Source: Fragum whitleyi
Lineage: Eukaryota; Mollusca; Bivalvia; Cardiida; Cardiidae
Direction: 5' to 3'
NCBI GenBank assembly: GCA_948146395.1
Contig: OX411558.1
Span: 37,274,850-37,338,849 of the forward strand
Length of the DNA: 64,000 bases
The notes under the pieces are model-generated. The model ran no database searches and was not told where the DNA came from. It saw only the letters and a list, made by a program, of their open reading frames with translations. Position 1 is the first letter of the stretch. Each line of letters begins with the position of its first letter. Of this stretch, positions 1,180-61,700 are shown piece by piece. The position numbers and the translations under genes are program-made.

Positions 1180-1249
1180 ACCGGGCAGATCCAGTAGTAG
1201 TGCCACAGGCCGCGGTACTCTGTCTATTCAGGGTCTGAGTTATGGTGTG
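1180..1249 (+). repeat. DIP2: Partial upstream copy of DIP2 exon 1 (5' half)
   Basis: This 70-bp block matches the first half of exon 1285-1424 with a few substitutions. It keeps an upstream TTCCAG acceptor-like site and ends GTG before GTATGT, a donor-like site. It lies 105 bp before the true exon, and the linking intron text resembles the true exon's left flank. Its length (70, not a multiple of 3) would shift the frame if included. Confidence 0.85.
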
Positions 1250-1284
1250 GTATGTGGTATTATTTATACTGTTATCTATTTCAG

Positions 1285-1424
1285 GCCAGGGAGATCAAGT
1301 AGTAGTGCCACAGGCCGCGGAATTTTGTCTATGCAGGGTCTGAGTTATGGTGTTGTCAGAGTTGACAGTGAGAACAGTTTGACCTCCCTTACTTTACAAG
1401 ACTGTGGTCAAGTGATGCCAGGAG
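1285..1424 (+). CDS. DIP2: DIP2 exon 1 of window
   Basis: The exon follows a TTTCAG acceptor and ends at a GTATGT donor. It encodes the block with MQGLSYGVVRVDSE and GQVMPGG, in the first FAAL-like domain. It starts with the last base of a split codon, so an upstream exon must exist outside the window. A 5'-half copy lies 105 bp upstream. Confidence 0.93.
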
Positions 1425-4400
1425 GTATGTGGAGATCTTATTTAATATTGATTAGTTTTTTGTCATGGAAATGATTTAAGATTCCAATTTCCCCTCTCTG
1501 TTTGGTAGTTTTATTAATGCCCCCCGTATTGAAAGATTGGTGGCATATTGTTATGCCATTGTCTATCTGTCTGTCTGTCTTCAAAACTTAAACAAAAAAC
1601 TTAACTTTGCCAATATCTTGAAGCATATTCAAGATACAAAGATCATATTTGGCATGATGTTAGATATTAATGATACGCATCTGCTGATACCTAAGTCAAG
1701 GTCATGTGACAAGGTCATCTGTCAAGGTCAAATTACTCAAAAACTTAACAAAAAATTAACATTGCCAATATCTTCAACATTGCCAATATCTTCAAGTCTG
1801 TTTAAGATAAAAGTCTCATATTTAGCATGATGAAAGATCTCAGTGATAAACATCTATAGATGTCAAGGTCATGTTAAAAGGTCAAGGTTGTCTGTCAAGG
1901 TCAAAATTTTGAAGAAAAAATGCTGTTATGGGGGCATTCGTGTTTGACAAACATATCTTGTTTTATATTATTCTATAAGATAGATGTTCTCCTGTACCTC
2001 TGTAAGACAGATGAAGTGGGAAAGTTGTTTATGTGTGTATTTACCACTCTTTTTATCCGTTTTATTGTTTATTACAGCTATAATGATTGTAGTTAAGATA
2101 GATAGTCTCCCGTACCTCTGTTAGACAGTGGGAGAGGCATGTCTTGGGGATGGGGGTATGAGTGCGGGTAGGATTTACCTCTCTTTTATCTCTGTTTTAT
2201 TTTTTGTTACAGCAATTATGATTGTGGTAAAGATAGATGGTCTCCCGTACCTCTGTAAGACAGATGAAGTGGGAGAGCTGTGTGTGTGTGCTGGATACAC
2301 GGGAACCAGCTTTTGGGGACTGCAGGGAATCACAGCTGCAACATTCCAGGTAATTACAAATGGTAATCTGAACTTGCTTGTCAATGAATTAGAAATAGTA
2401 TTATAACATTAAGGATTAAAACGCATATATGAAATAAAAAAAAATAACATAGAGCTTTTTTTTCGCAATAAGATTCATATGTCATGTTTTTTACTGTGTA
2501 CACAGATAACTCCGCCCATTTATCATACAGAGAGCCATCTGTAGCAGGAAAGTTGTTGCTTTTGAGGTCATATGCTAAATGGTGGCATTTTCTCTCTGTG
2601 AATTTGCGTGTTGATGTGCTTATTAATTAAATCTGATGGAGGGAGGAGTTTTATGCACAGCAAAATCCTTGGGCTCCACCATCACATTTTACCTTTTGCA
2701 TATAACTCATAAATGCAAAAATGAAGTTATTTCATAATCGATACATTCATAATGTCGATAAATAGATCCTGTTTGTATGATTAAAAAAAGATAAAGGAAA
2801 ACTATCTTGAATGATAAGGAATTAGTCAAAAATTGTGTCTCCATTAACCTAACAGCTCATAAATTGAACTTATGTCTGTTTCAATGCCAGATTTTCATCC
2901 TTCTTTGAACAAAAAAGATAAACTTAAGAAAGATTAATCATTTGAAAATGGAAAACAAAATAATATTCTATTTTTATTAATGCAAAAAACAGACAAAATT
3001 TTAAAATGTCTGTTACACCCCACCTAGTATTTTATTTTCAAAGTAATGTGAGGACACATTTAATGAAATGCTGTACAATTTTTTTTTTAGGTTCAACCAT
3101 TACACAGTGATGGCAGACCAGCGGGAGATAAAATCTACGTCAGGACAGGACTTCTTGGGTTCTTGGGACCAGTAAGTTATATTTTATCTTTTGATCAGTT
3201 GATAATGCATCGTGATTTTGACCCCTTGTTCCACCAACTATTTTCCAAAAATTGTACATATGTCATTGACAAGAGTAATTTGTCATCTGTCAATGGGAAA
3301 ATGGTCGTTGTTATTCTGAAACTTTGATCAAGCTGCAGTTACGGGGTTTTAGAATAATATTGACGAAATGATAAGTAGTACACCTGAAAAATTGGGGGGG
3401 GGGGGGGGGGGGGAGGGAACAGCTTGTGCATTACATGAAAAGCTGTGGTTGTACTGGTGTGAGAATCCACAGGAAACCTTACATCTGCCACAATGATGTA
3501 TATATTATCTTATAACTATACAAATATCCGTATGAAAACATCCCGTATGATATTTTTTATGATATCACATAGTTATTTTTAGAACATTATATGTTGTGGT
3601 TATTTTTAGATACTTGCATTTCAGTTATAAACACCGACGGAAACAAGACAAATATAGGTTATAAGATAAATATAATACGTACTTGGTGTATTGTATGAAA
3701 AAAATATCAAACTCGGTTGTGAGAATTGATAATTGTCTCGGCAGAGCCTCAACAATTTTCAATTCTCCCAACCTCGTTAGATATTTTTTTTCATATAATA
3801 CACTAAGTACGTATTATATATTTACATACTTAGTGTTTTGTATGAAAAAAAATATCTAACGAGGTTGGGGGAATTGATAATTGTTGAGGCTCTGCCGAGA
3901 CAATTATCAGTTTCCACAACCGAATTAGATATTTTTTCATACAATACACTAAGCATGCATTATATTTATCTTATAAGATTTATTTGCCTTGTTTTAGTCA
4001 ATGTTATGACAGAAATGTAAGATTCTAGAAATAACCGTGTTATGTCATTGTTCTTAAAATATCCATGTGATATCATAGAAAATATCATATGGGATGTTAT
4101 CACACGGATATTGTATAGTTATAAGATAAAACTGCAAAACTATTGAAAGTTGTGTTAAACACCCATCAAAAAAACACTTCACACTGGGGCTGATTTTAAG
4201 TCTAGGCTCCTTATTTTCCTCTAATTTAGTTAGAGGTAAATTACTATGCAAAATATCAGAAAAATGCTGGCTGTAAAAGGGATTGAATTTGTGGCCTCAT
4301 GATATCCTCCTCTCTATTTGATTACTAAGAGTTTGACATAAGAATGTTGTTAAATTGTTACCAATATATATCTGATCAATACCCCTTTTTTGGGGTACTT

Positions 4401-7400
4401 GTTTAATTGTTTTTATTTATAAAATATTAACCTTTTAATATTAACAATTTGCACAGTCTTTCTTAAGCATTTAATACTTCTTTATGTGAACTTACCCTGA
4501 CTATTCCTCTCTATTATAGGGTGGTCTTGTGTTTGTATGTGGCAGTAAGGAAGGTTTAATGCAGATCTCAAATACAATACAAATAAGCAATGCATTATAC
4601 AACACAGATTATATATTCCCCCCTCTCTCTTACAGGGTGGTCTTGTATTTGTATGTGGCAGTAAGGAAGGTTTAATGCAGATCTCAAATACTGTACAAAT
4701 AAGCAATACATTATACAACATGGATTATTGTATTCCCCTCTCTCTTACAGGGCGGTCTTGTATTTGTATGTGGCAGTAAGGAAGGTTTAATGCAGATCTC
4801 AAATAGACGACACAATACAGACGATATTATAGCTACAGTTCTTGCTGTAGAACCCATGAAATTTATATATAGGGGAAGGTAAGTTTATTTCACCTTTGTA
4901 TTTTCATAAGCCTATCAAAAGCTTTATGTGAGCTTACCTTGACTATTCCTCTCTATTATAGGTAGGTTTTTTTCACCCTTTAAAACTAGTATTTTTATGT
5001 GTCCATCAACAGATGAAACATATTATTTGATCACCAGGATAAGTGGACAGCGTCCACTACTTAACCCTGGGCAGAACTCTTGTCACCTTATGTCTGATTG
5101 ACTTGAAACCTGGCAGATAATATGTTCCTGTTATGATTATGGAGTGCAGTGTGCAAGAACAGTAATTCTACATAGCTTAATTTTTGAGTTATAAACTTTT
5201 ATTGTGTATCATACTTGAAGATCAAGCAGTGTAAATGGTTTATCTTGTGACAATTTTCCACATTGTTTGACATGTGATTTATGTCCTTGGTAAAGTGGGC
5301 TTCCATTAGATGATATCAAATAGTGTGAAATAGATGAATTGTCAAATGATAACCAAATAAGAAATATTGATATTTCACCAATATGCATAAGGAGATTATA
5401 AAAGACAGATGAAATTATTGTTCAAATATAATATGAAGATGGGTTTAAACTTCACATTATTTCTTGCATTTCTAATACCAAAACCCTTCTAGAAAGAAGT
5501 AGCAGTGTCATTTTCATTTCATGGTTGATTTCATTTATCAATAAAAGTGTACTCCTCTTCACAACTTAAGGTAATGAACCAATAATAGTTCCGCAACATT
5601 TCAGATCTCACGATCTTTAACAATGTTTGCTGAGGTTTTCCTAATGAAATCATTAGGAAACCTTTGTTAACACTGTCAAAAGTTCATTTCTTCCGAAACT
5701 TTGGGAAACTATTACAGGTTGCCTATCTTAAATATGGTGCAATATAACAGCTTTTGTTTCATCTTGGACAAATCCTAAAATGGAAAATATTTGACAGGAT
5801 TGCGGTGTTTTCAATCGAAGTGTTAAAAGATGAAAGAATTGTGATAATCGCAGAACAGCGACCCGACTGTCCAGAAGAAGAAAGTTTTCAATGGATGTCT
5901 CGAGTGTTACAGGCTGTAGACAGTATACATCAAGTGGGCGTGTACTGTCTGGCTTTAGTCCCACCCAATTATCTACCAAAGGTAGGAACTACTTTATTGT
6001 GTTGTACGGTATACACCATGTGGTTGTACTGTCTAGCTTTAGTCACACCTAACTATCTACTAAAGGTAGGGACCATGTTATCTTTATGTAGAGTATACAT
6101 CAATTAGGTGTAAACTATCTAGCCTTAGTCCCGCCCAATTATCTACCAAAGGAAAGGACTCGTTTATTGTCACTCACAGTACACAGAAAGAGGGCATGTA
6201 CTGTCTAGCTTTAGTCCCGCCCAATTATCAACCAAAGGTAGGGACCATGTTATTGTTTTGTATGGTATTCACAATGAGGGTGTACTGTCTGGCCTTAGTC
6301 CCTCCAAATTATGTACCAAAGGTAGGGACAATTTTATTGTTATGTACAGTATACACTATGAAGGTGTACTGTCTAGCTTAAGTCCAGCCAAACTATCTAC
6401 CAAAGGTAGGGATCATTTTATCTTAATTTATGATAAACATCAAGTGGGCGTGTAATGTCTGGCTTTAGTCCCACTAATTATCTACCAAAGGTAGGGACTC
6501 CTTTATTGTCACTTACAGTAAACAATAAGTGGGCGTGTACTGTTTGGCTTTAGTCCTGCCAAAAATCTACCAAAGGTAGGGACTATTTTATTGTTGTGTA
6601 CAGTATACATCAAGTGGGCGTGTAATGTCTGGCTTTAGTCCCCCCTTTTTATCTACCAAAGGTAGGGACTATTTTATTTTCATGTACAGTACACATCAAG
6701 TGGGCGTGTACTGTCTGGCTTTAGTCCCGCCTTATTATCTACCAAAGGTAGGGACTATTTTATTGTTGTGTACGGTATACATCAAGTGGGCGTGTACTGT
6801 CTAGCCTTAGTTCCCTCTATTTATCTACCAAAGGTAGGGGCTATTATAATATAAGCAAATATACAAAATAGATCTTTGAAAGTTAGATTAAAATTTGTTT
6901 TTTGTATTTGAAAAAAAAAAAACACAAACATTTATACAGAGAAAGGGAGGCCTTATAGTTTGAAAATTGAATGATTAAGGGATAAAATCAATCAAAACAA
7001 ACCAAATTCTGATTTTTCTAGGACACATCCCAAAATGTAAGTGCAAATATTTAGCATGATGCAAGCTCCATATGCATATTTGTTTATCTATCTTTCTGTC
7101 TATTTGTCTCTATGTGAGACATCTTTCATTCAGACATTTATGGCTACAACCATGAATTGATTAATATTGAATGTTCTGTTCTGATATTTATGCCAATCTA
7201 GATCAATCTTTAACATACTTTGAATATTCTGTCTTTAAAAATGATAAACCCTTGACTGATTATTGAATTGATTTACTAATTGATTGTTGAGAAAGGTGAT
7301 TACTGATTATTGAATTGATTAACTAATTGATTTTTGAGAAAGGTGATTATGTCTCTATGCTCTAAAATGATTGGATTATTTTATAAACATTGATAGATCA

Positions 7401-10400
7401 CACTAAAAATCTAGCTGCCGGTGTTTGGACTCAATGGAAATAGTTTTTCCGATGTCAAAGAAATTGCGGATGTTAATTAAAGTCAAAAGTGTTACCTTGG
7501 CAGGTTAAAGTAATTACTAAAATTTTGGTTATCAATGAATAGAAATTGTTCTGAACTCAGGGCTTGTGTTTGACCCTTAAACCAAGGTTTTGACTCCCAA
7601 ATATTTTTAGCTCACCTGAGCACGAAGTGCTCAAGGTGAGCTATTGTGGTTAGGTGGATGTCCGTCGTGCGTCATGCGGTGTCCGTCGTCCGTCGTCAAC
7701 ATTTGCCTTGTATGCACTCTAGAGGCCACATTTTTTGCCCGATCAACCTGAATTTTGGTCAGAATGATTGTCCTGATGAAATCTCGGACGAGTTCGAAAT
7801 TGGGTCAACTGGGGTCAAAAACTAGGTCACAGGGTCAAATCTTAGAAAAACTTCGTATGCACTCTAGAGACCACATTTTTTGCCCATTCAACCTGAATTT
7901 TGGTCAGAATGATTGTCTTGATGAAACCTCGGACGAGTTTGAAATTGGGTCAACTGGGGTCAAAAACTAGGTCACAGGGTCAAATCTAAGAAAAAGCTTG
8001 TATGCACTCTAGAGGCCACATTTTTTGCCTGATCAACCTGAATTTTGGTGAGAATGATTGTCTTGATGAAATCTTGGATGAGTTCGAAATTTGGTCAACT
8101 GGGGTCAAAAACTAGGTCACAGGGTCAAATCTTAGAAAAACCTTGTATGCACTCTAGAGGCCACAATTTTTTGCCAGTTCAACCTGAATTTTTGTCAGAA
8201 TGAAAGTCCTGATAAAATCTCGGATGAGTTCGAAATTGGGTCAACTGGGGTCAAAAACTAGGTCACGAGGTCAAATCTAAGAAAAAGCTTGTATGCCCTC
8301 TAGAGGCCAAATTTTATGCCTGATCAACCTGAATTTTAGTGGGAATGATTGTCTTGATGAAATCTTGGATGAGTTTGAAATTGGGTCAACTTGGGTAAAA
8401 AACTAGGTCACGGGGTCAAATCTACAAAAAATGTTGTATGCACTCTAGAGGCCACATTTTTTGCCCGATCAACCAGAATTTTGGTCAGAATGATTGTCTT
8501 GGTGAAATCTTGGACGAGTTCCAAATTGGGTCAACTTGACTCAAAAACTAGGTCACAGGGTCACATCTTAGAAAAACCTTATAAGCCTTCTAGTGGCCTC
8601 ATCTATTGTCCAATCAACCTGAATTTTGGTTAGAATGATTGTCTTGATGAAATCTTGGATAATTTTGAAATTGGGCTAACCAGGGTCAAAAACTAGGTCA
8701 CAGGGTCAAATCTAAGAAAACCTTTTATGCACTCTACAGGCCACATTTTTTGCCCAATCAACCTGAATTTTGGTCAGAATGATTGTCTCGATGAAATCTT
8801 GGACAAGATCAAAATTGGATCAACTGGGGTCAAAAACTAGGTCACAGGGTCAAATCTAAGAAAAACATTATTGGCACTCTAGAGGCCACAATTTTTGGCC
8901 AATCAAAATGAAATTTGGTCAGAATGATTGTCTAGATGAAATCTCGGATGAGATCGAAATTTGGTCATGGGGGGTCAAAAACTAGGTCACGAAATCAATT
9001 ATAAAAATCCTTGTTGGTCAACCTTAAAATTGTAAAAAAAGGATTCTCAAGTTGTATAGAAGCAACAGCTTTGTTTAGCTGAGTCATTCATCATTTTATT
9101 TCTAATACTTCATTTGAAAATTTTAGACAGTTCATTCAGGTGAGCGATTAAGGGCCACTATGGCCCTCTTGTTTTAGCTCACTTGAGCACGAAGTGCTCA
9201 AGGTGAGCTTTTGTGGTCGAGTGATGTCCGTCGTCCGTCGTCCGTCGTGTGTCGTCAACATTTACATTGTAGACACTCTAGAAGCCACATTTTTTGCCCG
9301 ATCAACCTGAAATTTGGTTAGAATGATTGTCTTGATGAAATCTCGGACAAGTTCGAAATTGGGTCAAGTGGGGTCAAAAATGAGGTCACGGGGTCAATTC
9401 TTAGAAAAACCTTGTAGACACTCTAGTGGCCAAATTTTTTGCCCAATCAACCTGAAATTTGGTCAGAATGATTGTCTTGATGAAATCTCGGACATGTTCG
9501 AAATTGGGTCAAGTGGGGTCAAAAATGAGGTCACGGGGTCAAATCTTAGAAAAACCTAGTAGACACTCTAGAAGCCATATTTTGTGCCCAATCAACCTGA
9601 AATTTGGTCCGAATGATCATCTTGATGAAATCTCAAACAAGTTTGAAATTGGGTCAAGTGGGGTCAAAAATGAGGTCACAGGGTCAAATATTAGAAAAAC
9701 CTTGTAGACACTCTAGAAGCCATATTTTTTGCCTGATCAACCTGAAAATTGGCCAGAATGATCATCTTGATGAAATCTAGGTCATTGGGTCAAGTGGGGT
9801 CAAAAATGAGGTCACAGGGTCAAATTTTACAAAAACCTTGTAAGCAGTGTAGAGGCATCATTTTTTGCCCAATCAACCTGAAATTTGGTAAAAATTCTTT
9901 ATCCTTTCTAAATCTACTTTAAAATATTTTCGACAGTTCATTCAGGTGAGCCATTTAGGGCCACTATGGCCCTCTTGTAGAATACCTTATTTCAACCATT
10001 AGAATTTTTTCCCAAGGGGGGGTCATTTTCCTTGAGAGAAATTTCTAAGGGTCAAACCGGGATTTGTTTCTCAAAGTTTCATTGATGTATCTTGTATACT
10101 ATCATAAGTTTTACAAATTAATTTCTTTCTTCATATCTTGACAAGAAAAGGTAGTTTGACTCTTCATATCTGTACAAGAAAAGATAATTTGACACTTTAA
10201 TCTGCAAAATTTTACTAATGATTTGACCGTTCTGCTGTTTTGACCCCTGTCAATTAGTTTTGACCCCTGAAATTTCCTGGTTGAGGAACTCAATATCTAC
10301 TCAATTTCAAATGCTAGTACGAGCCCTGTTAATCTTTCTCATGCTGATCAGAACGTAAACAAGGGTTTGGCAGACAGTTTAGACTAGGATCGACAAAGAT

Positions 10401-13400
10401 GTGTAGTCTGATCTTACCCTACACTGCCTGCTTTCCACTCAATTCTTGCCCTAAAATCCAGAGTCAGACAAGAAGAAATACTCAAAAAATGACATTTTGT
10501 TTAAAACAATATCTAAGTACAGCAGGATAAGGGTTGAATATGTTCTCAGTGTTACTGATTGCCTGTCTTCACAGGTTAACCGGTAAGAAGTATTTTACAA
10601 TGAAAAGAAAGGAAAATAGATCAACATACATTAATAATTATACCCCCCACCTACGAAGTAGAGGGGGGTATATTGGTTTCACCATGTCTGTCTGTCTGTC
10701 CATCCGTCCATCCGTCCGTCCATCCGTCCGTCCGTCCGTCCGTCCGTAGACCTTTTCGTTTCCGGACTCTAACTCAAGAACCAAATGACCTACAATCATG
10801 AAACTTTATACAAATGTTCCTTATGACCCAAGGAAGTGCCCTATTGTTTTTGGGTCATATAGGTCAAAGGTCAAGGTCACAGTCAGCCTTTGTTCAATTT
10901 TCGTTTCCGGACTCTAACTCAAGAACCAAGTGGCCTACAATCATGAAACTTTATACAAATGTTCCTTATGACCCAAGGAAGTGCCCTATTGTTTTTGGGT
11001 TACATAGGTCAAAGGTCAAGGTCACAGTAAATTTTTGTTCAATTTTCGTTTCCGGACCCTAACTCGAGAACCAAGTGACCTACATGTATGAAACTTTATG
11101 CAAATGTTGCTTATGATCCAAGGAAGTGCCCTATTGTTTTTGGGTCATATAGGTCCAAGGTCAAGGTCACAGTCAATTTTTGCTCAATTTTCATTTCTGG
11201 ACTCTTAACTCAAAAACCAAGCGACCTAGAATCATTAAACTTCATGCAAATGCTACATATGACCTCATTATTAGTTACAAACACATCCTGCACTAATAGC
11301 ACTTACATTCTGACAAAGCGTTTGTGGGGGGTATTAGTCCGCTCTGCGACAGTTCTAGTTAAAGCTGAATTAAAAAGAATCTTTTATTTTCATCAAGTTA
11401 AATTATCCTAGAAAATAGTCTTGAAAAGAGTAAATTGAGCCTGTGCCTGACATTTCCAACAAGTTCAAATGTGCACCAAGCAAAGACTGGTTAGCCTGTG
11501 CATCTGCACAGTCTGACCAGGGCCTTCACTTTTGCTCTTTGTAGAAAGATTGGGTCCAAAAGTGTCTTTAGAAAGTCAGGCAAACGTCTTATTAAACTAT
11601 GTGGCAGTCAAAGTTGGTTAATGTTGGCCTTTCACGCACATATCAAATTGTTGGAAATGTCACACACAGGCTAAATTGTCTATACACATTTATTTATTTA
11701 TTTCCATACTCTTCCAATTGTAATTGATCATTTTATTATTTAAATTTAATTATCTTGATACATGTATGTCACTAGCATTGGCTTTCAATTTTGTTCTGTA
11801 GACTATTTTGTTACCTGGTTTAAATTTCAACCTTTTCTTACATGGTCCCATTATGAACACTTCTCATGAAAATAAGCAAAAAAAAAGGAAATATCTTGGA
11901 AAATGAAGAAATTGCATGTAACAAGTAACTTTTCATTGCCAATAACATTTTCTTAACATAGTCTGTTTTTATTGTCTAAGACTTCATGCAAAATGGTTCC
12001 ATCTAATAAAAATTGTTTGATTATGGTTCCCCGACGGCGGCACTCATTCTTTCCAACTAGACCTATGTAAGATAGTAGCTGGAGGCTAGGAAAGAATGTG
12101 ATGGTAGTACTGGTGAGAGAAATACCAGGGATCCATTGTTAGGTGCTCCAGCCGCCGCGATATAACTGCAATAATGTTGAAAGCGGCGTTAAACTCCATT
12201 CAATCAATCAATCAATTGATTATGGTTCAGTGTATATGTTCTCTACTGTTTCAGACACCCTTAGGAGGTATACACCTACACGAGACCAGAAAGAAGTTCC
12301 TCGAGGGCTCTTTACACCCCGCCAATGTTCTAATGTGTCCCCACACCTGCGTGACAAACCTCCCAAAACCGCGTGAACACCGCCCTGACAGGGACGTCAC
12401 ACCATCAGCGGTCCATGTGGGAAATATTGTACAGGGTGCCAGACTAGCATGGGCACAAGGGAGAGAACTCAGTATGGCAGAAGAGGAAGGGGATGGGACT
12501 AAAAAAGTAGGTTTCAACAACTTCATTACAAAAGTGAAACTTAATACCTAATCCTTCTTTAGAATTAATAATGGTTGTAATGATTTGATATTTTCTGATA
12601 TCTGGTATTACACTGAACAAAACTTATAAATGAACACCTGATTTTCATGGTCGAAAAAATATTTATATGGTTATTCAAACTTTTCTGCATTTCAAATATG
12701 AAAAAGGACACTTCAAGATGCAGGCTGAATTAAAAAATGCATTGAAATTCCCTTTGAATACAAATTTACCAGGCTTCTGAACTGCACAAAAATAAATATT
12801 GATGGAAGGCGTAATTTTCACTGTTTTGATGTAGATGGCGCACACTTCAACTTTCAATCTAAAATTAGCATGTTTTGGTGTCATATAGAAATTGTGAAAC
12901 TCACAGATTTGTACTTACTTTGTTACTTCTTGAATTGGGGCTAACTGTGAAAGTCTCAAAAGAGCTATTGACATACCCTCGGATTTAGGCATCAATGTTG
13001 GTGTTGGTGTCTGCATTAGATTGATAAGTTTATTTGACTTGTGAGATTTTTTGCCATGATAAAGTTTTAATGTCATTATTACTTTATTTCAGCACCAATT
13101 TTTGACGGAGATTTTACGATTCAGAGCTCAGACCACACCAGACCACAATCTTTTTACACTGCTCAATTCTAAAGTAAGTGATATCCTTTAAAAATAAGGA
13201 AGGATGATTGTTTGTTTCAATGTAAGATTGATAAAATCATTCATTTGGTGAGCAGCATAAGCTTAATTTGTTCACTAAAAGAAAGATTTATTATTTACAA
13301 AAAAAATTAAAGAATTACCCTAAATGTAAAGTTCCGATATAAATTCTCTTGTAGCCCAAATTTTCAGATGTGACTGCAATGTACAGTTATCACATAATTG

Positions 13401-16400
13401 GTAAACTTGGCAAATTGAGTCAATGTGATGAAATCAATTAACTCAGGGGTTTAACACTTTCTTGCTCTTTGGAGATTACTGGTTAGCAAGCTTTGAGTTA
13501 AAATTGGGCCATCATATTGCTGTTGGTAACATATCAAACTTTCAATCTTTAATCAAAGGTTTTATGTCCAGCAGCGGAAAATTATTTCCCAAATACATTT
13601 ATTTAGATATCAAAGGTTTAGCCTAATACTATTGTAAGTGCCTATTAAAGTATAGGCGTATAGTCATCAATTACTTGTTTGTGACCTGTCATGCCATCTG
13701 GGAACTCTGAAAGATAAAAATATGAAAAAGAGATTGGGTCCAGCACAGATTAACCAGATGTCGGATTTCTAAATTTCTTTCACCCTAGATTAAACATTCT
13801 AGGTTCAGAAAATAAGCACATTGTGAAAAGTTTCAACCTTAGTCAGTCTGTGCAAACCGCGCAGTCTGACTAGAGTCGACACATTATGCACTACCCAGAT
13901 GGTCCCTTTTTGCTTGATGGGTCACAATTATTGGCTTTTACATTAGTTTTGTACTGACCCCCTGATATTCATTTTGATATTGCCTTTTGAATAACTGCAC
14001 TTTATAATATGACCTACGTGGCATGAGTGAAATAACCCCATTGAATATTTTTGATATTACACAGGTGTTATTACACTGGTGGCACAACTATGCAAATGAG
14101 CTCAGAGAAATAGCAACGCTATTTTGTAACCACGAAAATGATGTCATAATGTATATATTGTGACGTCAGTTTTAAATGGCCTTATAAGTTTTGTGGAAAA
14201 TTGAAACGTTGAATTTCAAGAATGTTGACGACTTTTTGCAAAAATTCAGGTCATATTATAAATAGAATATAAAATTTGGGCTCATCAAATACAGAATTTA
14301 TAAATCTTGTCATCTATAAACAGATAAAAACGGCACAGCCTTTTTTTATCTGTGTATATATGACTCATTTGATAAATTCAGTATTCTATGACCACTCAAT
14401 CAAAATCCTCTAAATATTATCTTATCTTTCTACAGTTTGTTTATTGTATGAATTTTAGCATGAAGTTATATCGATGGTTCCTTTCCACAGGTGCAAGTCA
14501 GTTTAACCATGACGTGTTCACAACTCCACAAGCGTGCAGAGAGGATAGGCTGTATGTTGATGGAGAAAGGACGATTGAATTCCGGAGATCATGTAGCGTT
14601 ACTTTACCCCCCTGGGATAGAACTTATTGCTGCGTTCTTTGGATGTCTTTATGTTGGTGGGTATCTCCTTTTTACACCAAAAATAATTTAGATCAAATTC
14701 AAAGAGGTTGTAGACAACAATAAACCATGTGAAATCATATGAACAAACAATGTTGAATGTGAAAACACATGAATAAGCAAACTTGATTTGAAAACACATG
14801 AAATGGCAAACTTAATTGTGAAAACACATGAAATGGCAATTTTAATTCAGAAAACACATGAAATGGCAAACTTAATTGTGAATACAATTGAATACGCAAA
14901 CTTGATTTTGATAAAAAAAAAAAAGAATAAACAAACTTGATTTGAATAAAAACACATGAATAAGCAAACTTGATAGTGATTAGATAAGAAAAAAAAAGAA
15001 AAAAATTTTTATCATTGTAAAATACCATCCATACAAACTTTATTTTGCCTGTTTGCTGGCGCGCAACTAAATCTCAGGATGAACAATTTCTTTCCATGTA
15101 CTTTCATACCTAGTGTATTAAAACTATTCATTCTAAATCTTGTAATGACATTTGGTATGGTCTTTGACTGAAATCTTGTTTAGTGGTTGCAATTATTTGG
15201 TGATTATTATTATCAAGGAAAAACTTGTTGACTTGTTTGTACAGATTTTCAAAAAATGTTAATTTCACAAACAGGATGTGTACCTGTAGTTATTCGACCA
15301 CCCCACCCACAAAATGTCGCCACAACGTTACCCACTGTAAAAATGATCGTAGAAGTGTCCAAATCATCCGCCATTCTAACCAACACAGCCACAGTGAAAT
15401 TACTTAAATCCAAGGTAAGTCTTTGTTTTATAGCTGTTAAAATTTTATGACTGTACATTAGATATACTGTCATTTGGTCTGCAAAACTTCCCCCAAATTA
15501 AACATTACTGAACCTATAACTGGATGTATTGAAGAGAAATTACTCCTATTCGACAGAATGACATAATCTCACTGATACACACTGATGCTGTTACTAATAC
15601 CACGGTAAATGTGGTCAATGTAATCTGAAATCTATAAAGGTCAAACTTCTTTGAAATAAATTTGTCTGTGTCAGAATATGAATATTGTCATTGAGCGATC
15701 TGAATATTGTAACCTAGCTTATTCACTTTGTAGTTAGCCGCCTTCATAGGGCAGTTGGTAGGGCATCAGACTGTCAATCTAGAGGTGGCGGATTCAATCC
15801 CCAGCTGTGGCACTCATTCTTTCCGACTATTTGTCTCTCACCAAGGGGTTGATAATCGTAGAACTACATGTATGTCAGATAGCAGCTACAGGCTAGGAAA
15901 GAATGTGATGGTTGTACTGGTGAGAGAAATACCAGCAATCCAATGTAAGGTGCTCCGGCTGCCACGATATAATTGAAATAATGTTGAAAGCAGTGTTAAA
16001 CTCCATTCAATCAATCAATCACTTTGTAGTTACAAAGATTTGGTCCCTTAATAATAGCATTAGATCGACAAAAGTAAGATAAGTTTTATGATAAAAGTTC
16101 AATGTACTTTGTTTGTTGTTTTATGTAGGAAGCAACACCAGTAGTAGAACACAGAGCATGGCCAACCATTTTAGATTCCGACGATCTTCCCAAGAAAAAA
16201 CTGGCTGCCATCTATAAAGCACCAACTCCAGAAATGATCTGTTATCTAGATTTTAGTGTATCAACAACCGGGATGTTGGCAGGAGTAAAGGTAAGTGAAT
16301 GAAAGTGGCTGCCATCCAGATTTAAGTTTGCAAGCTACAGACATTCAAATACAAAAACTGGCTGCCAACTATTAAACCTATTAAACACCATCTCCAAAAA

Positions 16401-19400
16401 TGATCTGATATCTACATTTTAATGTATCAACCACAGTCAGTAAGGCCTGTGCAAGCTGATCAGGATCAATACTACATGTGGTGTCCGGCATCCAAGCTGG
16501 CAGACTGTGTCCTCTTCATGCCTGGAGTGTAACTCTGTCACCTTAAGTCCAATTGACTTGAAACTCAGCAGTTATGTTCTTCACATGGTTACGGAGTGCA
16601 GTGCTTAAAGAACCGAAACTCTACTGAGCTTAATTTTTGAGTTATTTCCCTTTGTTGATTATCATATTTGTACATCAAGCAGTGTAACAGGTATATATTG
16701 TGACAGTTTGACACTTGTTTTAAACTGATAAATATTAAGTAAATGATTTCTATTTACACTACAGATGTCTCATGCCTCAGCCACAGCCCTGTGTAGAACA
16801 ATCAAATTACAGTGTGAGTTTTACCCTTCTAGAGAAGCCTGTCTGTGTTTAGATCCATACAGTGGACTGGGGTTTTCTCTCTGGTCTATGGCAGGGTAAG
16901 TCATTGATTTAATTCATATAATCAAGTGGTGTTGGTTTTCAAGGGTTAAGGGATGATTTTTATGCCCCTACATGGATTGATCTGGAGTTAATTATTGTTA
17001 GCTCCACTGGCCGAAGGCCAGCGAGCTATTGTCATGGTGGAGTGTCCGTCGTGCGTCCGTGCGTGGGTAAACTTTTTCTTTAAACATCTTCTCCTCCCAA
17101 ACCAATGGGCAGATTTTAACCAAACTTGGTAGAAATGATCCTTGGGTGGCCCTCTTCTCAAATTGTTCAAAGAATTTTGATTGGCCCCCAAATATGGGCG
17201 TGGCAGGGCGTGGCGTTTTTTCACTTTGAAATCTTTAAAAATCTTCTCCTCCCAAACCATTGGGCCGATTTCAATGAAACTTGGCATGGATGTTCCTTGG
17301 GTGACCCTTTACTTAAATTGTTCAAGAAAGTTTGATTGGCCCATAAATATGGGCGTGGCAGGGCGGGGCTTATTTGGAGCCCAAAATCTTCGAACAACAT
17401 CTCCTCCTGAACCACTGGGCCGATTTCAATGAAACTTTTACAGAATGTTCCTTGGATAACCCTTTACTTTAATTGTTAAAGAAATTTTGATTGGTCCTTC
17501 AATATGGGTGTGGCAGGGTGGGGCCTATTTTTAGCCCGAAATTTTCGAATGACATTTTCTCCTGAACCACTTGGCTGATTTCAATGAAACTTTACCAGAA
17601 TGTTCCTATAGTGTCTCTTTTCAAAAATTATTTGCTAAATTTTAATTGGCCCATAAATTTGGGTGTGGCATGGCGGGGCTTTTTTTGAGGCCAAAATCTT
17701 TGAACGATATCTCCTCCGGAACCACTCAGCCAATTTCAATGAAACTTTACCAGAACGTTTCTTGGGTGACTTTTTTCTTAAATTGTTCAAGAAATTTTGA
17801 TTGGTCCATAAATATGGGCGTGGCAGGGGGGGGGGGGCTTATTTTGAGCCCGAAATCTTTGAACGACAATTTCTGAACCTTATGTTTTAATAAGATGGGT
17901 AAAGGATTGCAGGTTCATTGTAATTGAGTATTTTGGTGCAATATGGACCAGAACCAGTTAATCATTATTAAATAGGTCTTAGGAGATTTCAGAGTGTTAA
18001 TGCATTCATTTAAAGTAATGAAAGTCTAAAGATTTTAAAGCCAGTGGAGCGATACAGGCCCTCTTAAGCCTCTTGTTTGCCCTGTCTGTTGCTCTGTTTG
18101 TAAAAAAAAATATTTTAACATAGGCTATAACTTTTGAATGGTAAGTGATTACACTTAGTAAAGACAAAGTCTGCACTACTTGTTCTCTAGGTAACGACAT
18201 AGTCAAAGCTTCTTTCAAGATCTGCTTAAAATTCTAAATGCACCACATGGCTGTTAAGGATGCCCATAAATATTTTATGCTCAAATTTTAACAGTTTATA
18301 TTCCGGTCACCACACCATTTTAGTTTTACCCTCAGACAATGATGCTGACCAAGATCTTAGTCTACACTGCCTGCCAAAGATTTTTTGCGCAGGAGGAATA
18401 TGCTGTAAATAGTATTAAAACATTTTAACTTGTTCAGTTTTACATTACAGTATATACTCGGGTCACCACACCATTGAGTTCCTCCCTCAAAGAAGCTGAT
18501 CAAGGCTGCAGGCTGATCTCAGTCCAAACTGCTTGTCAAAGATTTTTTTCACAGCAGGAATTTGCTGTAAATAGCATGAAAGTGTTCAAACTTGTTCCGT
18601 TTTACATTACAGTATATACTCGGGTCATCACACCATTTTAGTTCCTCCCTCAGAAGTAGAAGCTAATCCAGCTGTTTGGTTGTCTGCAGTTAGCATGTAT
18701 AAAGGTGGGTATGAATAATTGTCACTTGGAAAATGCTTGACTGCATTATTACAAGGTGCATTTTAAGCTTGGCTGTGTTCAGCGCAGTAGTATTGCAACC
18801 CACTATCATTCAAAAGGTCCCAGGTTTGATCCCTGACGGCTGCACTCATCTGTTCTGACTAATTGTTGATAATCAGGGTTGATAATCGTAGACCTATGTG
18901 GTATAGCAGCTGGAGGCTAGGAAGTGATGTAATGGTAGGAACTGTCTGAGAAATATGACAGATCCATTGTTAGGTGCTCTAGCCGCGGCGATAAAACTGA
19001 AAGATTGTTGAAAGTGGCAATTAAACCCCATAAAAACAAATCGAAGCACTTTCAGCCATTGTGCAGTTGGTAGTCATTCATCTGGCATTAATGGGTGAAT
19101 TTTTGTGCAGTCAAAGTACTGAAATGCAAGTTTCTAAAAATAACTGCATTATATCATTGTTCTAGAAATAACTATGTGATATCATTAAAAAATCATATGG
19201 GTTGTTATCACACAGATATTTGTATAGTTATAAGATAAAAAAATTTATGCAATGACACCTTTCCTTACATATGCACTGAGTATGCTTGTTTGAAAGTCAA
19301 CCTTTAATTACATCATTTGTAGCAATTAAATTTGGTGGCCGAAATGCATCAAATCTCTTTAAGTAACACCACACCATTGATGAAATCTTCAAGGTCTATT

Positions 19401-44179: not shown

Positions 44180-44220
44180 TTTGTGGAGGGTAGGCCTGAC
44201 AATGGAGGTTTTGTCATAGG

Positions 44221-44238
44221 ATCCCACCTCTGCCACCA
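44221..44238 (-). promoter_or_regulatory. Primer-binding site, copy 1 (tRNA-Leu-like)
   Basis: Two bases inside the 5' LTR edge, the - strand reads TGGTGGCAGAGGTGGGAT. This differs at one position from the complement of the 3' end of animal tRNA-Leu with CCA (recalled, not searched). The 2-base offset is ordinary for Ty3/Gypsy elements. Confidence 0.8.
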
Positions 44239-44240
44239 GT

Positions 44241-45102
44241 TGTAGCGTTCCTGCTAGGAACCCGAGCGGATATATGGCTTCACACCTAACACTTGCCTCA
44301 ACAAGGCAACTCTCGTGATTCCACTTCACTGAGGCTTATGGGCCTCAAATCAGCGGCCTCAATGACTCCTGCTTCAATGAAGTTGAATCACACCAGCTTC
44401 AGGGAGGTGTCCTCCTTGAAGCCCTATCTATAGGTCAATTGCGGCAATCGTGCCGACTCTTAAGATCTACGAGCTGTAGCTTATGGTGACCGATGACTCA
44501 ATAAGCCAGCTTCAATGACGTCTTCTTCGACTACAAATAGGTTTCACGACCCGGGCAGCAGAGTGTTGTACTAATCCTATGGCCATCAATAAAGCGGGGC
44601 TTCCTTGAAGGTGTGGAGGGAGGTTTCAACACTGGATATCACCCAAAGACCTGAATTATATTTGTACCATCCGCACAGCTTGATGAACAAACCCGGACTG
44701 ACTAAATCAGTAGGAACAGCCATTTATATACTATGTATAACATCGCCCCCTAGCGGATAACAAGGACGCCACCATATGGACCACGAGTATTACCGGAGTT
44801 CGACGGAAAGAACCGATCCTATAACTACTATAATTAATAAGCGTCTGTTGAGTACGTTCAAACGTGACCGGCCGTAACTTTGCTTGGGCCTATTCTTAAC
44901 CACTTCCAACTTATAAATGGTATTAAATAATGGAAAGTAAATCACTGATACAAATAAAATCCCTAACAAATTATATTTATGGAGGAGAAACCTACCAAAG
45001 TACAATATAAACCCGATCTTTTCTGCTATGTAAATGTCGTCGTTTGTATAAATGGGAATAACTTTCGAAAACTGTATATGTATATTTCCTACTTTCGTTA
45101 CA
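44241..45102 (-). repeat. LTR 2 (shared middle LTR)
   Basis: It is 862 bp, with the same ends as LTR 1 and 3. It serves as 5' LTR of copy 1 and 3' LTR of copy 2. No target duplication lies on either side. Confidence 0.97.
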
Positions 45103-45287: not shown

Positions 45288-48200
45288 TTACTTGTACTCC
45301 AAGTCTATCTCGACCCCTCCTTCTGCTTTCAGGCGCACTACCATACTTCTGGGGTTGATATCTCCCTGTGGTAAGTACTGTCCGATCCTGAATGTCTGAT
45401 CCTCCTCTTGGGTCCTGCAGGCTGATTCAGTGATGAACAGATCCTCACCATCCTCCTGTACTTTAATTTTACTTTTATGGAGCCGGCCATCTCTACCAGA
45501 CGCACAGGTCAACTTTACTACAGGTGGCCTAACTGCTAATGGGACTCGAGGTGCCATCTCCGGAATCACAGCTGTCAGAGGTGTAGAGGTTGCTGACCTC
45601 ACTGGCATATTGATCTTGTCTCCACTTGCCATGGCTGCCTCTACCTTGCCACTTGTGTTAGGGGAAGGGGATCTCGAACGCGGAGAAGTTACAGTCTCTG
45701 ACACTTTCCTCCTCTTTGGGGCCAGAACTGGAGTAGGTCGCGTCGGCTTCGAAATAATTCTGCCCTCTGCAACGTCTTGCTTCTCCTCTCCTACTTCCAC
45801 ATCCGACTGGTCCTCCCAATCACTTGATCTGGTGTCCTTGGTTGTGCCCTCGTCATTGACGTGCTTCCTTCTAACATGTTGTAAGTAGTACTTCCGGCAG
45901 CTAAATGTTTTCTTGCACTCATCACACCCAACGTTCTTTGTAACACACTTTTCCACGTGGTAGCGGTAGTCCTCTGGTGTTGCCAGGACCTCATCGCAAT
46001 TAGCGCATATCATCTTTGCCTTTCTCTCCGTGACTTTGGTTCTTGCCATTGACATATCCCTGGAAAGAGATAAAACATAATCGTTTAACCATGCTGGCTT
46101 ACGCCTCTCTCTCTTAGGCTGAAAAGAGACTTCATAATCTTGACTTAAATCAGCATTTTCTAGCGGACTTTCGTTTGAACTATTTTCAAAAGACTCCCCA
46201 GATAAAATTTGCTTTTTGCAGGGTCTTAATCTATCGCAATGAATAACTTGGATATTGTTTGACCTCCCACAATTTACTTTATATAAAACATCAGATACTT
46301 TTTCTGTGATTTCGTAGGGTCCTCTCCAATAGGAGGTAAACTTTGAGGAGCAACCTATTTTCTTAACAGGAAAATAAACATAGACCTTATCGTTTACCCG
46401 AAATTTGTCATAAGATAATTTGCTGTCATGGTATTGCTTTTGTCTTTTCATAGATTCTCCAGTATTTTGTCTAACGACGCGATGGGCTACTTCTAATCTT
46501 TCTTGCAGTTCCCAAACCCACTGATTGATGGGGAGTTCTTTAATTGATGGGGGCATTTCATACATAAGATCAAGCGGACAAGTCGTTTCACGACCTAGCA
46601 TACACTGATTTGGTGTAAAGCCAGTTGTTTCGTGTTCAGATGAACGGTAGGCCATCATGACCAATTGAAGGTGCTCGTCCCAGTCTGTGTGATTTTCGTT
46701 GACAAACGCACTAAGCATGGTGACTAACGTTTTGTTAAATCGCTCGACCATGCCATCTGACATGGCGTGATATGGTGTAGTTCTTGTCTTCTCTATTTGC
46801 AGAATCCTACACATTTCTGAGAAGAGCTGGCACTCAAATTGGCGACCTTGGTCAGAGTGAATTAGCCGCGGAACCCCAAAACGAGAGATGACCTGGTTTA
46901 CCAGAACTGAAGCAACGGTTTTTGCTTCTATATTAGGCAAGGCATGACATTCTGTCCATTTCGTAAAGTAGTCACCTATGACTAGAATATATCTATTCCT
47001 GTTATCGGTTTCTGGAAGTTCACTAAGTATGTCGATTGCAATCCTTTCCATAGGATAGCCACTTCTTACTATTTCCATAGGGGCACGTTTGGTTTTTATA
47101 GGATCTTTACGCTTGGTACATGCCTCACATGCACTGACATAAGTCTTGATATCGTTTTTCATTCCAGGCCAATAGTAGCGTTGACTAACTCGGCGTATTG
47201 TCTTTTTAATACCAAGATGGCCTGAAGCCCTTATATCATGAGAGTATTTCAGGACCTCTCTTCTCTTCTGCAGTGGTACAACTCCTTGCCAGATTACTTG
47301 GTCGGTATCTTTTATCTCGCGACATCTCATAATGAGGCCATTTCTTACTTGAAGCTGCTCCCATTGTGAAAGCAAGGTTTTTAAGAAATAGCCCTCACAC
47401 CCTATGACTTGTTTGTCAGGTTTTGAGCCTGCATCGATCCAAACTCGCAATTTATTGAGATCGGTGTCCTGTCTTTGTGCTTCTTTTAAATCGATTGCCT
47501 CGTTTGCTTCCTTAGTACCAACTTTATTTATTTGGTTATTCACATGGCTACTCTGGCCACATTGTTTACATGGAGAGCGACTTAACCCATCAGCGTTTCC
47601 ATGTCTTTTTCCAGCACGGTGCTCTATCTTCATAATGTAAGGAGACAAAACCTCCAACCATCGAGCTACCTGTCCTTCCGGATTCTTGAACCGCATGAGC
47701 CATCGCAACGAGCTGTGATCAGTCCGAACTGTGAAAGGCTTTCCATAAAGGTAATGACGGAAATACCTGACAAAATGAACCAAGGCAAACAATTCTTTTC
47801 TGGTAACACAGTACCTACGTTCAGCCTTCGTCAGACTTTTACTTGCGTAGGCAACGACTCTTTCCTGTCCATCAATCTTCTGCGACAAAACTGCCCCGAT
47901 TCCAAAATCGCTAGCATCCGTGTCAAGAATAAACTCCTTAGTGAAATCGGGATGAACCAAAACAGGGTCTTTGCACAGACTTTGTTTCAGCCTCAAAAAT
48001 GCTTGCTGGCAATCGTCAGACCACTTAAATTGGACCCCCTTTTCAGTCAACCTATGAAGAGGTTTTGCAATTTCAGAAAACCCCTCGACGAACCTACGGT
48101 AGTAGCCACATAGCCCTAGAAAAGATCTGACATCTGTTACGTTTCTGGGCTGGGTCCATTCCTGGATAGCACTTGTCTTTGCTGGATCAGTCTTTATACC

Positions 48201-50798: not shown

Positions 50799-50839
50799 TT
50801 TGTGGAGGGTAGGCCTGACAATGGAGGTTTTGTCATAGG

Positions 50840-50857
50840 ATCCCACCTCTGCCACCA
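50840..50857 (-). promoter_or_regulatory. Primer-binding site, copy 2 (tRNA-Leu-like)
   Basis: Identical to the copy 1 site, 2 bases from LTR 3. Confidence 0.8.
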
Positions 50858-50859
50858 GT

Positions 50860-51721
50860 TGTAGCGTTCCTGCTAGGAACCCGAGCGGATATATGGCTTC
50901 ACACCTAACACTTGCCTCAACAAGGCAACTCTCGTGATTCCACTTCACTGAGGCTTATGGGCCTCAAATCAGCGGCCTCAATGACTCCTGCTTCAATGAA
51001 GTTGAATCACACCAGCTTCAGGGAGGTGTCCTCCTTGAAGCCCTATCTATAGGTCAATTGCGGCAATCGTGCCGACTCTTAAGATCTACGAGCTGTAGCT
51101 TATGGTGACCGATGACTCAATAAGCCAGCTTCAATGACGTCTTCTTCGACTACAAATAGGTTTCACGACCCGGGCAGCAGAGTGTTGTACTAATCCTATG
51201 GCCATCAATAAAGCGGGGCTTCCTTGAAGGTGTGGAGGGAGGTTTCAACACTGGATATCACCCAAAGACCTGAATTATATTTGTACCATCCGCACAGCTT
51301 GATGAACAAACCCGGACTGACTAAATCAGTAGGAACAGCCATTTATATACTATGTATAACATCGCCCCCTAGCGGATAACAAGGACGCCACCATATGGAC
51401 CACGAGTATTACCGGAGTTCGACGGAAAGAACCGATCCTATAACTACTATAATTAATAAGCGTCTGTTGAGTACGTTCAAACGTGACCGGCCGTAACTTT
51501 GCTTGGGCCTATTCTTAACCACTTCCAACTTATAAATGGTATTAAATAATGGAAAGTAAATCACTGATACAAATAAAATCCCTAACAAATTATATTTATG
51601 GAGGAGAAACCTACCAAAGTACAATATAAACCCGATCTTTTCTGCTATGTAAATGTCGTCGTTTGTATAAATGGGAATAACTTTCGAAAACTGTATATGT
51701 ATATTTCCTACTTTCGTTACA
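50860..51721 (-). repeat. LTR 3 (5' LTR of copy 2)
   Basis: It is 862 bp and ends TTTCGTTACA, directly followed by the target duplicate GTAT at 51722-51725. As the outer 5' LTR it should hold the promoter for the upstream copy. Confidence 0.97.
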
Positions 51722-55446: not shown

Positions 55447-55494
55447 CGTTCAGGATCACAAAAGGTTCCGTGTGCAAACAGTTTTCATATTACA

Positions 55495-58612: not shown

Positions 58613-58618
58613 TTTATT
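58613..58618 (-). promoter_or_regulatory. GMPPA: Candidate GMPPA polyadenylation signal
   Basis: AATAAA on the - strand about 46 bases after the stop codon. A short 3' UTR would result; unproven without transcripts. Confidence 0.45.
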
Positions 58619-58663
58619 GATTGTGAATATGCCACTTTATTTGAATGTCAATATTGCTGTAGA

Positions 58664-58764
58664 TCACAAGATGATCTGGTTCTTGTAGCTGCCGTTTAAC
58701 TCCTTATTTGGTAATACTATGGAATTTAGGATGATCACCTCGGATGGTACATGAACATCAGATC
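58664..58764 (-). CDS. GMPPA: GMPPA terminal coding exon
   Basis: Acceptor TTTTCCAG. It encodes [19 protein letters not shown] and [13 protein letters not shown], then TGA. The ending NQIIL is the family's conserved C-terminus. Confidence 0.95.
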
Positions 58765-61700
58765 CTGGAAAAGAAATCACATGAATCTCTTATATATTGT
58801 CAGTTAAATTCACAAATCTTTTAACTACAAATCTTCTTACTACAGCTTGATCAAAGCTATAGTAAGAAGGTTATGGAATTACAACAATGATATGAAGGAA
58901 ACATTTAACCCTTGTCTTGGTGAACTAGAAATAATCAGGCAATGGCAGGGGGTATAGACAAAGATCAGCCTGCATGTTATGAGCAGTCTGATCTTAATCT
59001 TTACCTTATTTTCATTATTTAACCAGAAAAATCTCTTCTTTTATTTGTCAAAGGAAACACAAACATGAATGAGTGCATGCAGGGCTTTCAGCACATTGAT
59101 TATAATCCAATTTTCAAAAGGTTTTTATTCAGTATGACAAGGGTTCAAGTCAAAAAACACACCTAAGAAAGTACAAACATATGTGTTTTCTATTAAGATT
59201 TTCTTTTTCTCAAATAGCCCCCATTATCTTCTTTGACAAACAGCCATCAAAGACTTCTATGTCTTATACATATGTAAAATCCCTTTTTAGAATGATGACA
59301 TCATCATTACATCATCTAGCGCAAATTTTCATGGAATTTCTATAACTTTGCCGATTCAAATTTGGTTTTTAATGTACAAACTGTTGTTTATGTGAGAAAA
59401 AGTATCCTTACTCGATTTGCATGAAAGAAACTGATCTTACCCTAGTTTAGAATAGAAAAATTATTATGCTAGCCTTACATTTTCATTCATTAGGATTAGC
59501 TGGTGTCATACAAAATCTCAAAACAGATCTTATATTTCTCATTATTTCAACCCTTTTAACCCTTGTCATGCTGAACCCAGAATATTCCTGCTTTAACAGG
59601 AGGTATAGACAAAGATCAGCCTGCACATATGTGCAATCTGATCTTAGTTTATGCCACCCGAATTTCATTTTCAAACCAGAAAGGTGTAAAACAATGTATT
59701 TCTGAAATCAATACATACTCACATTTGGTTAACTTCCAGTGCTTTCACTACTTTGATCTTTACATTCATTTTGAAAAGATTTTTAGTCAGCTTGACAAGG
59801 GTTAAAATAGATTAAGAACCATGAAATTTGATCATTCAAAGGGACTGAACTCTTTTTACTCTTAATAATATTTCAGCTAAATCGCTGCTGTTTGAGAACC
59901 TTACTATGGCTTTCTGATATTTATCTTATAACTATACAAGTATCCGTATGATAACAACCCGTATGATATTTTTTATGATATCACATAGTTATTTTTAGAA
60001 CAATAATATCATACAGTTATTTTTAGAAACTAGCATTTAAGTTAGAAACATCGACTAAAACAAGACAAAAAGAGGTTATAAGATAAATATAATACGTACT
60101 AAGTGTATTGTATGAAAAAATATCTAACTCGGTTGTGAGAATTGGTAATTGTCTCGGCAGAGCCTCGACAATGATCAATTCTCCCAACCTCGTTAGATAT
60201 TTTTTTCCATACAAAACACTAAGTACGTATTATATATTTCTCACACCAGAATAACCACAAAGCCCTTCCTCAGGCTGCTCAATTCACTCACAGTCATTGA
60301 TACGGGGTAAATGTACCTTAGCCTTAGATTGAACCTGTGACCTTATTTCACTACTCACTGTGTTATGACAGGGGCCCTAGAATTTTTTTGTGGGAGAGTC
60401 AATGACTCCTTAATAAAGAGGGCATAAATGTCTTAAGTTAGTGGACCTGTAAAAGTTCCACAACAGTTCTGAAGTCATGAACTTCAACAGTGTTAACTAA
60501 GATTTCCTAATGATTTCATTAGGAAACTTTGGTTAACATGGTGAAAGATCATTTGTTCCGAAATGTTGGGGAATTCACGGGTCCACTACCCTAAGGCAAC
60601 CACATGGATATACAGATGGATGAACAGACAGAGAATGATTACACAATATGCCTCCAATCTAATCCATGCAGGGGAATAATAAGATATTTCATATCTCACC
60701 AATAACAGTGATAGAAGGGTTGAGTTTTCCTTCATTGGAGAATGTGGGAATAGCTTCTAGTTTAGCAAATGGTTTATTTGGGTTTGGATCATTTGGAGTT
60801 CCTTCAATCCTCGTCCAGGTTCCAACCTGACTGTTCCAGCCTATAATACTGTATAGGATACAACAATGGTCCTAAAAATAGAATCAAGAGGATTCCCAAG
60901 TTTCTAAAAATAGAAATGAAAGGATCATCATGTAAAGGATCCCCATTTAAAGTATCTAAAAGAAAACAAAGAATTTGCAATATTACAGTAAAAGCAATTG
61001 ATGACTCGGCAAAAACAGTTGTAACTGCCTATATGTTTATAGGCAGTTACAACTGATTCTCATCAAGTCATCAAAATTGTCTGTTTGGTTTGGATCATTT
61101 GTTGTTCCTTCAATCCTCGTCCATGTCCCAACCTGACTGTTCCAGCCTATAATACTGTATAGGATACAACAATGGTCCTAAAAATAGAATCAAGAGGATT
61201 CCCAGATAAAAGTTTCTAAAAATAGATGCAAGAGGATCATAATGTAAAAGTTTCTATAACTGGGAAACAATAGGACAACCATACAAAAGTTTCTAGGATA
61301 AGATAAGAGCTATAAGACGATGATGGCCCAGAGTCAAACAGTTGTAATTGTCTTTATGTTTATAGACAGTAACAACTGATAAAAAACTAACCTTGTTTTT
61401 GTTAAATTATGTTCTGTACTGTGATATTTATTGGTATAGGTTATTTAATTTTGATTTTAACTATAATTGCCTCTCTAGGTCACCCACAGCAAGGACCGCA
61501 ATGGAAATAAGGGTTTACTCCTTTTTGCGTTATCCTTGTTGTTAGGAAGCATGTCATGGTTCTTTCAAATTTAAGTAATCTATAATTTCTTATTTCGAAT
61601 TGTGTATTTTTATATGACTTTATCCCATGAACCATTATATGTTACCTATGCCTAAATAAAACTATTATTATTCTCATACAACTGATAGGAAAATGGTCCA

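What the first reader, a model, noticed from the sequence alone, without database searches (positions are those of the whole stretch)
1180..61177. Recurrent tandem copying of exon edges in two unrelated genes
Six coding exons (DIP2 exons 1, 2, 4, 5, 12 and one GMPPA exon) each sit at the end of a small tandem array of partial copies of themselves. In five cases the copies are the 5' exon half with acceptor and lie upstream. In one they are the 3' end with donor and lie downstream. Unit sizes differ (about 85, 105, 115, 120-135, 160 and 306 bp), so this is not one repeat family. It suggests a genome-wide process favouring short tandem duplication that includes splice junctions, in which only the outermost unit stays complete.
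Basis: partly seen in the sequence, partly recalled or inferred. Interest (0 to 1): 0.87.

Follow-up and report, generated by a model that had tools for sequence, protein, structure and literature searches.

The report
Partial tandem copies of exon edges
Several exons of two ordinary animal genes sit beside decayed partial copies of themselves, left by short duplications of a kind that also occurs elsewhere in the same genome; the copies are real, but exon edges are not clearly a favoured target.

Summary
DIP2 exons at 1285, 2213, 4751, 5798, 18613 and GMPPA exon 60871-60700 have partial local copies far above chance; a seventh case was missed (exon 16129-16290, copy 16353-16434). The host genome could be sampled. 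By one criterion copies touch 7 of 23 window exons, 2 of 20 exons of the same genes outside, and 3 of 33 chaperonin exons; background segments: 118 of 300 (window introns), 176 of 600 (DIP2/GMPPA introns), 100 of 600 (random tiles), 33 of 264 (chaperonin flanks). 'Only the outermost unit stays complete' follows from geometry. The 5:1 acceptor bias is not significant. Substitutions fit neutral copies beside a conserved original, so exon-bearing duplications stay visible longer. Against this: after removing dispersed families, private duplications on exons exceed raw expectation (9 vs 2.6; outside the window 4 vs 1.8, P 0.11), and edge-only overlaps in the window exceed random placement (6 vs 2.2, P 0.015). 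Edge-crossing tandem duplication is a known event that can create introns (Ma et al. 2016).

The parts
229..343 (+).
   Evidence: sequence read; tblastn; tested as 231-342
1285..1424 (+).
1170..1251 (+). partial copy of E1: acceptor plus first 72 nt, offset 105, 88% identical
2213..2349 (+). DIP2 exon E2, complete
1977..2037 (+). far partial copy of E2 (exon part only in the stringent alignment)
2039..2137 (+). near partial copy of E2 with acceptor
4751..4878 (+). DIP2 exon E4, complete
4506..4581 (+). outer partial copy of E4 with acceptor
4600..4690 (+). middle partial copy of E4 with acceptor
4922..4970 (+). orphan copy of the E4 acceptor region (4480-4528) downstream of E4, 90% identical
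5798..5981 (+). DIP2 exon E5, complete
6006..6848 (+). ten downstream copies of the E5 3' end with donor region, unit 84-86 bp; 9 of 10 keep AAG|GTAGGG
16129..16290 (+).
16353..16434 (+). downstream copy of the E10 3' part (16196-16268), 78% identical; the stringent match stops 22 nt short of the donor
18613..18704 (+). DIP2 exon E12, complete
18291..18336 (+). far partial copy of E12
18372..18504 (+). near partial copy of E12 with acceptor
60700..60871 (-). GMPPA penultimate exon, complete
61074..61380 (-). partial copy: 105 nt of exon 5' part, acceptor and about 200 bp of intron, offset 307

Best explanation
Short local duplications (offsets here roughly 85-570 bp) arise across this repeat-rich genome without clear regard to gene structure. 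If the duplicated segment spans one exon edge, the result is necessarily one complete exon on the outer side and one or more partial copies with the same splice site on the intron side: upstream for an acceptor-spanning event, downstream for a donor-spanning one. The copy becomes intron, the intact exon still makes the normal protein, and selection tolerates it; events that duplicate a whole exon or break an exon are mostly lost. The copies then decay neutrally. Because the real exon hardly changes at amino-acid-changing sites, such a pair diverges at about half the speed of a purely intronic pair at most of its sites and stays recognisable longer. Shown: copies, sides, background rates, substitution pattern. 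Inferred: the mutational step (slippage, or end-joining/template switching), the selection step, and that decoy sites are ignored in splicing.
For: Exons are hit no more than background: window 7 of 23 vs 118 of 300 window intron segments; same genes outside 2 of 20; CCT exons 3 of 33; tiles 100 of 600; CCT flanks 33 of 264 (Fisher P 0.51 for window exons vs window introns, 0.24 and 0.65 for the 53 other exons vs tiles and flanks). Sixteen arrays dropped at random in the window's gene space touch 6.8 exons' worth of arrays on average; 7 observed (22 exons). Geometry: in 14 of 14 cases the copy lies on the side that the matched end of the exon predicts. Substitutions over 19 copy/original alignments: introns 18.8%, synonymous sites 21.6%, non-synonymous 8.0%, close to 2t, 2t and t, the pattern of a neutral copy beside a constrained original; 9 of the 72 non-synonymous differences are stops in the copy.
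Against: In the window, edge-only overlaps number 6 against 2.2 expected from random placement of arrays (P 0.015) and fully covered exons 0 against 4.5 (P 0.0016); I ascribe both to selection and to dispersed satellites being insertions, untested. Counting only arrays with no other place in a 352 kb pool, exons carry 9 over 76 exons against 2.58 expected (P 0.0014), or 5.16 after a twofold clock correction (P 0.08); the window alone gives 5 vs 0.78 (P 0.001; corrected P 0.02) but was picked for this; outside it 4 vs 1.81 (P 0.11; corrected P 0.49). The rate (0.062 per kb) and target lengths were my inputs, rounded. If intronic duplications fade faster, a reservoir of weak ones should exist; only a slight surplus was seen (5 matches of 28 bits or more vs 1-2 in three nulls).
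Confidence: 0.75

Rival explanations
1. A mutational process in this genome really favours exon edges, for example breakage at transcribed or GC-rich exon borders followed by short tandem duplication.
For: Private, non-dispersed duplications on exons exceed raw expectation in the pooled 76 exons (9 vs 2.58, P 0.0014); 62 of the 80 arrays that touch no exon have other places in the pool, against 4 of the 13 that touch one; edge-only overlaps in the window 6 vs 2.2 (P 0.015).
Against: Not significant in the 53 exons not chosen for the pattern (4 vs 1.81, P 0.11; clock-corrected 3.61, P 0.49); unfiltered rates are equal to or below introns; the window was selected because of the pattern; 'private' in a 352 kb pool is weakly defined.
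Confidence: 0.15
2. The copies are kept because they work, as alternative exons or regulatory decoy splice sites.
For: The best copied acceptors of E1, E2, E4, E12 and GMPPA score 9.9-12.6 (leave-one-out median of real sites 8.85), and 9 of 10 E5 copies keep the donor. Using the outer acceptor of E1 would add 35 residues in frame without a stop.
Against: The score matrix was built from sites that include the originals, so it favours copies. The far E2 and E12 copies score only 3.8 and 1.4. The substitution pattern fits neutrality. Outer acceptors of E4 and GMPPA give stops; copies of N7 and of the CCT exon in L044 have lost the donor GT.
Confidence: 0.07
3. Assembly artefact.
For: Raw reads could not be examined.
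Against: Copies differ from originals by about 2-18% in exon parts and some carry indels; the pattern recurs on several chromosomes.
Confidence: 0.03

Closest known systems
[quoted passage not shown] Ma, Lan and Niu 2016, PMC4974935)
   Same: A short tandem duplication spans the 3' end of an intron and the 5' part of the next exon, so acceptor and tract are copied with partial exon; the paper also mentions a second, 83 bp tandem duplication inside an intron of the same gene (abstract, Introduction, Results and Discussion read).
   Different: There the duplicated exonic piece is expressed and a new intron is spliced, with RNA evidence. Here no expression data exist and the copies look like dead intron sequence; several are donor-side.
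Internal gene / tandem exon duplication (papers seen only in search listings)
   Same: Local duplication of exon-bearing segments.
   Different: Whole exons are duplicated there (recalled); here 0 of 76 exons is fully covered by a local copy under the criterion.
Dispersed satellite-like arrays carried by Helentron elements in oyster (Vojvoda Zeljko et al. 2020, PMC7492417; abstract read)
   Same: Many intron-only arrays here (units about 145-172 bp, recurring at several places) look alike in organisation.
   Different: Most exon-edge arrays have units not seen elsewhere in the pool; no Helentron ends were tested.

Membership tests
Edge-crossing tandem duplication | Direct local copy containing a splice junction plus partial exon | tested here: met
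   E1, E2, E4, E5, E12, G2; the E10 match stops 22 nt short of the donor
Edge-crossing tandem duplication | Intact exon on the outer side of the copies | tested here: met
   14 of 14 cases, (exon ends outside the window taken from profile or tblastn matches, so the edge of N8 and L048 is inferred)
Intron gain by tandem duplication (Rogers / Ma type) | Duplicated exonic piece retained in mRNA and a new intron spliced | not testable with these tools
   no RNA data; outer acceptors of E4 and GMPPA lead to stops
Tandem whole-exon duplication / mutually exclusive exons | A second complete exon copy | tested here: not met
   0 fully covered of 76 exons
Dispersed satellite or mobile element | Unit recurs at unrelated places in the genome | tested here: not met
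   E1, E4, E5, E10, E12 arrays: 0 other places in the 352 kb pool; the E2 (22 places) and GMPPA (9 places) clusters are fused with dispersed repeats, so their exon part was not judged apart
Exon-edge-favouring duplication process | Exon edges duplicated more often than matched intron segments | tested here: inconclusive
   not enriched unfiltered; raw excess among private arrays, not significant outside the window; edge-only excess in the window

The most novel reading that the evidence does not exclude
This genome has a raised rate of private short duplications that preferentially involve exon borders, so that roughly one exon in ten carries a decoy splice junction next to it: a large natural series of near-miss intron and exon births.
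Probability: 0.13. Interest if true: 0.65.

Novelty: new member of a known kind. Interest (0 to 1): 0.3.

Why it matters
In a repeat-rich animal genome about a tenth of the sampled exons (5 of 53 outside the window) carry decayed partial copies beside them, many with copied splice sites. That is raw material for intron gain and for studying how the spliceosome picks one of several near-identical sites (ten good donors at and after DIP2 exon E5). It also warns that such copies can outlive intronic duplications because the real exon is conserved, which can mimic a preference for exons.

Tried and rejected
Chance similarity: rejected. A reservoir of weak, older intronic duplications: only a slight surplus over the null, so I could not directly show it. 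Higher identity of exon parts as a sign of function: explained by the clock. Kinesin candidate on C3 (L053): no local copy found, dropped. A myosin-head search did not complete. A paper search for 'partial exon duplication' with tandem, intron and splice site found 0 papers; other searches gave the related work cited. Dropped before the strict private count: the E2, G2, N7 and L037 cases, because their clusters are fused with dispersed families; GM7 is in that count although its copy lies 976 bp away and it is not a hit.

Full report
Gene models. tblastn with recalled human-like DIP2 and GMPPA proteins, plus reading of the sequence, placed 20 DIP2 exons on the plus strand of the window (about 229-343 and 19 exons from 1285 to 27968) and three GMPPA exons on the minus strand (62284-62192, 60871-60700, 58764-58664). 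The ends of the 19 DIP2 exons carry AG/GT and their joined frame is open, with its only stop at the end. Thirteen more DIP2 matches and seven GMPPA matches lie in the flanking sequence; their ends are from tblastn and were not refined.

Observation. Self-comparison finds local copies overlapping seven window exons: E1, E2, E4, E12 and GMPPA G2 with the acceptor, upstream; E5 with the donor, downstream; and E10, whose 3' part is copied downstream. The E10 case is new. The best matches score 65-401 bits; shuffled tiles reached at most 26.8 bits and three order-2 Markov versions none of 34 bits or more.

Geometry. A duplication of a segment I+X, where X is the first part of an exon, gives I X I X rest. 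The complete exon is last and the copies lie upstream. A donor-spanning segment gives the mirror image. Hence the side of the copies and 'only the outermost unit is complete' are consequences of any edge-spanning duplication. Across the 14 cases seen (7 in the window; N7, N8 and three CCT exons outside; two kinesin exons) 14 of 14 have the copy on the predicted side, 7 upstream and 7 downstream. The E10 match stops 22 nt short of the donor. The kinesin cases were picked from the table because two matches overlapped in profile range, so they show occurrence, not rate; a third candidate from that table failed.

Background. In the window's gene space 16 arrays touch 7 of 22 exons; random placement gives 6.8 arrays and 6.9 exons on average. 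With one criterion (at least 20 exon bases covered by a local match of 40 bits or more, 600 bp flanks) the rates are: window exons 7 of 23; same genes outside the window 2 of 20; CCT exons 3 of 33; random-tile segments 100 of 600; DIP2/GMPPA intron segments 176 of 600; window DIP2 intron segments 118 of 300; CCT flanks 33 of 264. Segments were drawn with overlap, so they are not independent. Window exons differ from exons elsewhere (7 of 23 vs 5 of 53, P 0.037), as expected of a window chosen for the pattern.

Of 93 arrays in the sampled sequence, 80 touch no exon and 62 of these have other places in the 352 kb pool; of the 13 that touch an exon only 4 do (E2, G2, N7 and L037, fused with dispersed repeats). 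The excess sits in the window (5 vs 0.78); in the 53 other exons it is 4 vs 1.81, P 0.11. The pool is 0.03% of the genome, so 'private' is only roughly defined. One of the four, GM7, counts only with offsets up to 1100 bp and is not a hit.

The clock. Over 19 copy/original alignments (ten of them from the one E5 array, hence not independent), exon parts differ at 134 of 1185 positions and intron parts at 107 of 568 (P 3e-5). Differences per site are 0.216 at synonymous positions, 0.080 at non-synonymous positions and 0.188 in introns. A neutral copy beside an original conserved in protein predicts 2t, t and 2t. So copies seem to decay neutrally, and exon-bearing pairs stay recognisable about twice as long at most of their sites. 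With that factor the pooled excess is 9 vs 5.16 (P 0.08), the window's 5 vs 1.55 (P 0.02) and the independent one 4 vs 3.61 (P 0.49). A large reservoir of weak intronic pairs, which the clock would predict, was not seen: 5 matches of 28 bits or more outside arrays against 1, 2 and 1 in three nulls.

Edges, not whole exons. Of 76 exons none is fully covered by a local repeat, whereas many random segments are. In the window fully covered exons are 0 vs 4.5 (P 0.0016) and edge-only overlaps 6 vs 2.2 (P 0.015) under random placement of arrays. Selection against whole-exon or within-exon duplications, and the inserted nature of dispersed satellites, could explain this without a special process; this was not tested.

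Splicing. The nearer copied acceptors, and 9 of 10 E5 donors, remain strong by a matrix built from the window's own sites, which favours copies of those sites; the far E2 and E12 copies score low (3.8 and 1.4). Two outside copies lost the donor GT. Use of the E1 outer acceptor would insert 35 residues in frame; the E4 and GMPPA outer acceptors would bring stops. Nothing here shows use.

Literature. Ma, Lan and Niu 2016 (abstract, Introduction, Results and Discussion read) describe the same kind of event in potato, there producing a new intron. The kind is known; the cluster in one window is striking but selected.

Noticed in passing
window 38672-44335 and 45291-50954 (minus), with repeats near 38174, 44793 and 51412: Two 1888-residue open frames that look near-identical, with three copies of an adjoining repeat, in the DIP2-GMPPA interval; perhaps a recent tandem pair of a long-terminal-repeat type element (inferred; only seen in the ORF list).
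   Followed up: no
window 4922-4970: An orphan acceptor copy downstream of DIP2 exon E4, 90% identical to 4480-4528, suggesting a larger second-level duplication of about 442 bp.
   Followed up: partly
window 1180-1424: Use of the copied E1 acceptor would give an in-frame, stop-free insertion of 35 residues.
   Followed up: partly
window 61178-61256: The acceptor region of the GMPPA copy holds a nested 38 bp duplication that includes the acceptor tract.
   Followed up: partly
window 1522-1964; 7706-9978; 10753-11264; 17077-17874; 21295-22232; 24340-25178; 35808-36963: Satellite-like arrays (units about 145-172 bp) in introns and intergenic DNA whose sequence recurs at other genome places.
   Followed up: partly
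L051 and L052 (C9 and C16): Two kinesin exons with upstream partial copies including the acceptor, offsets about 330 and 128 bp.
   Followed up: yes
C16:37259978-37262324 (DIP2 exons N7 and N8, upstream of the window): Downstream copies of exon 3' ends; the N7 copy has lost its donor GT.
   Followed up: yes
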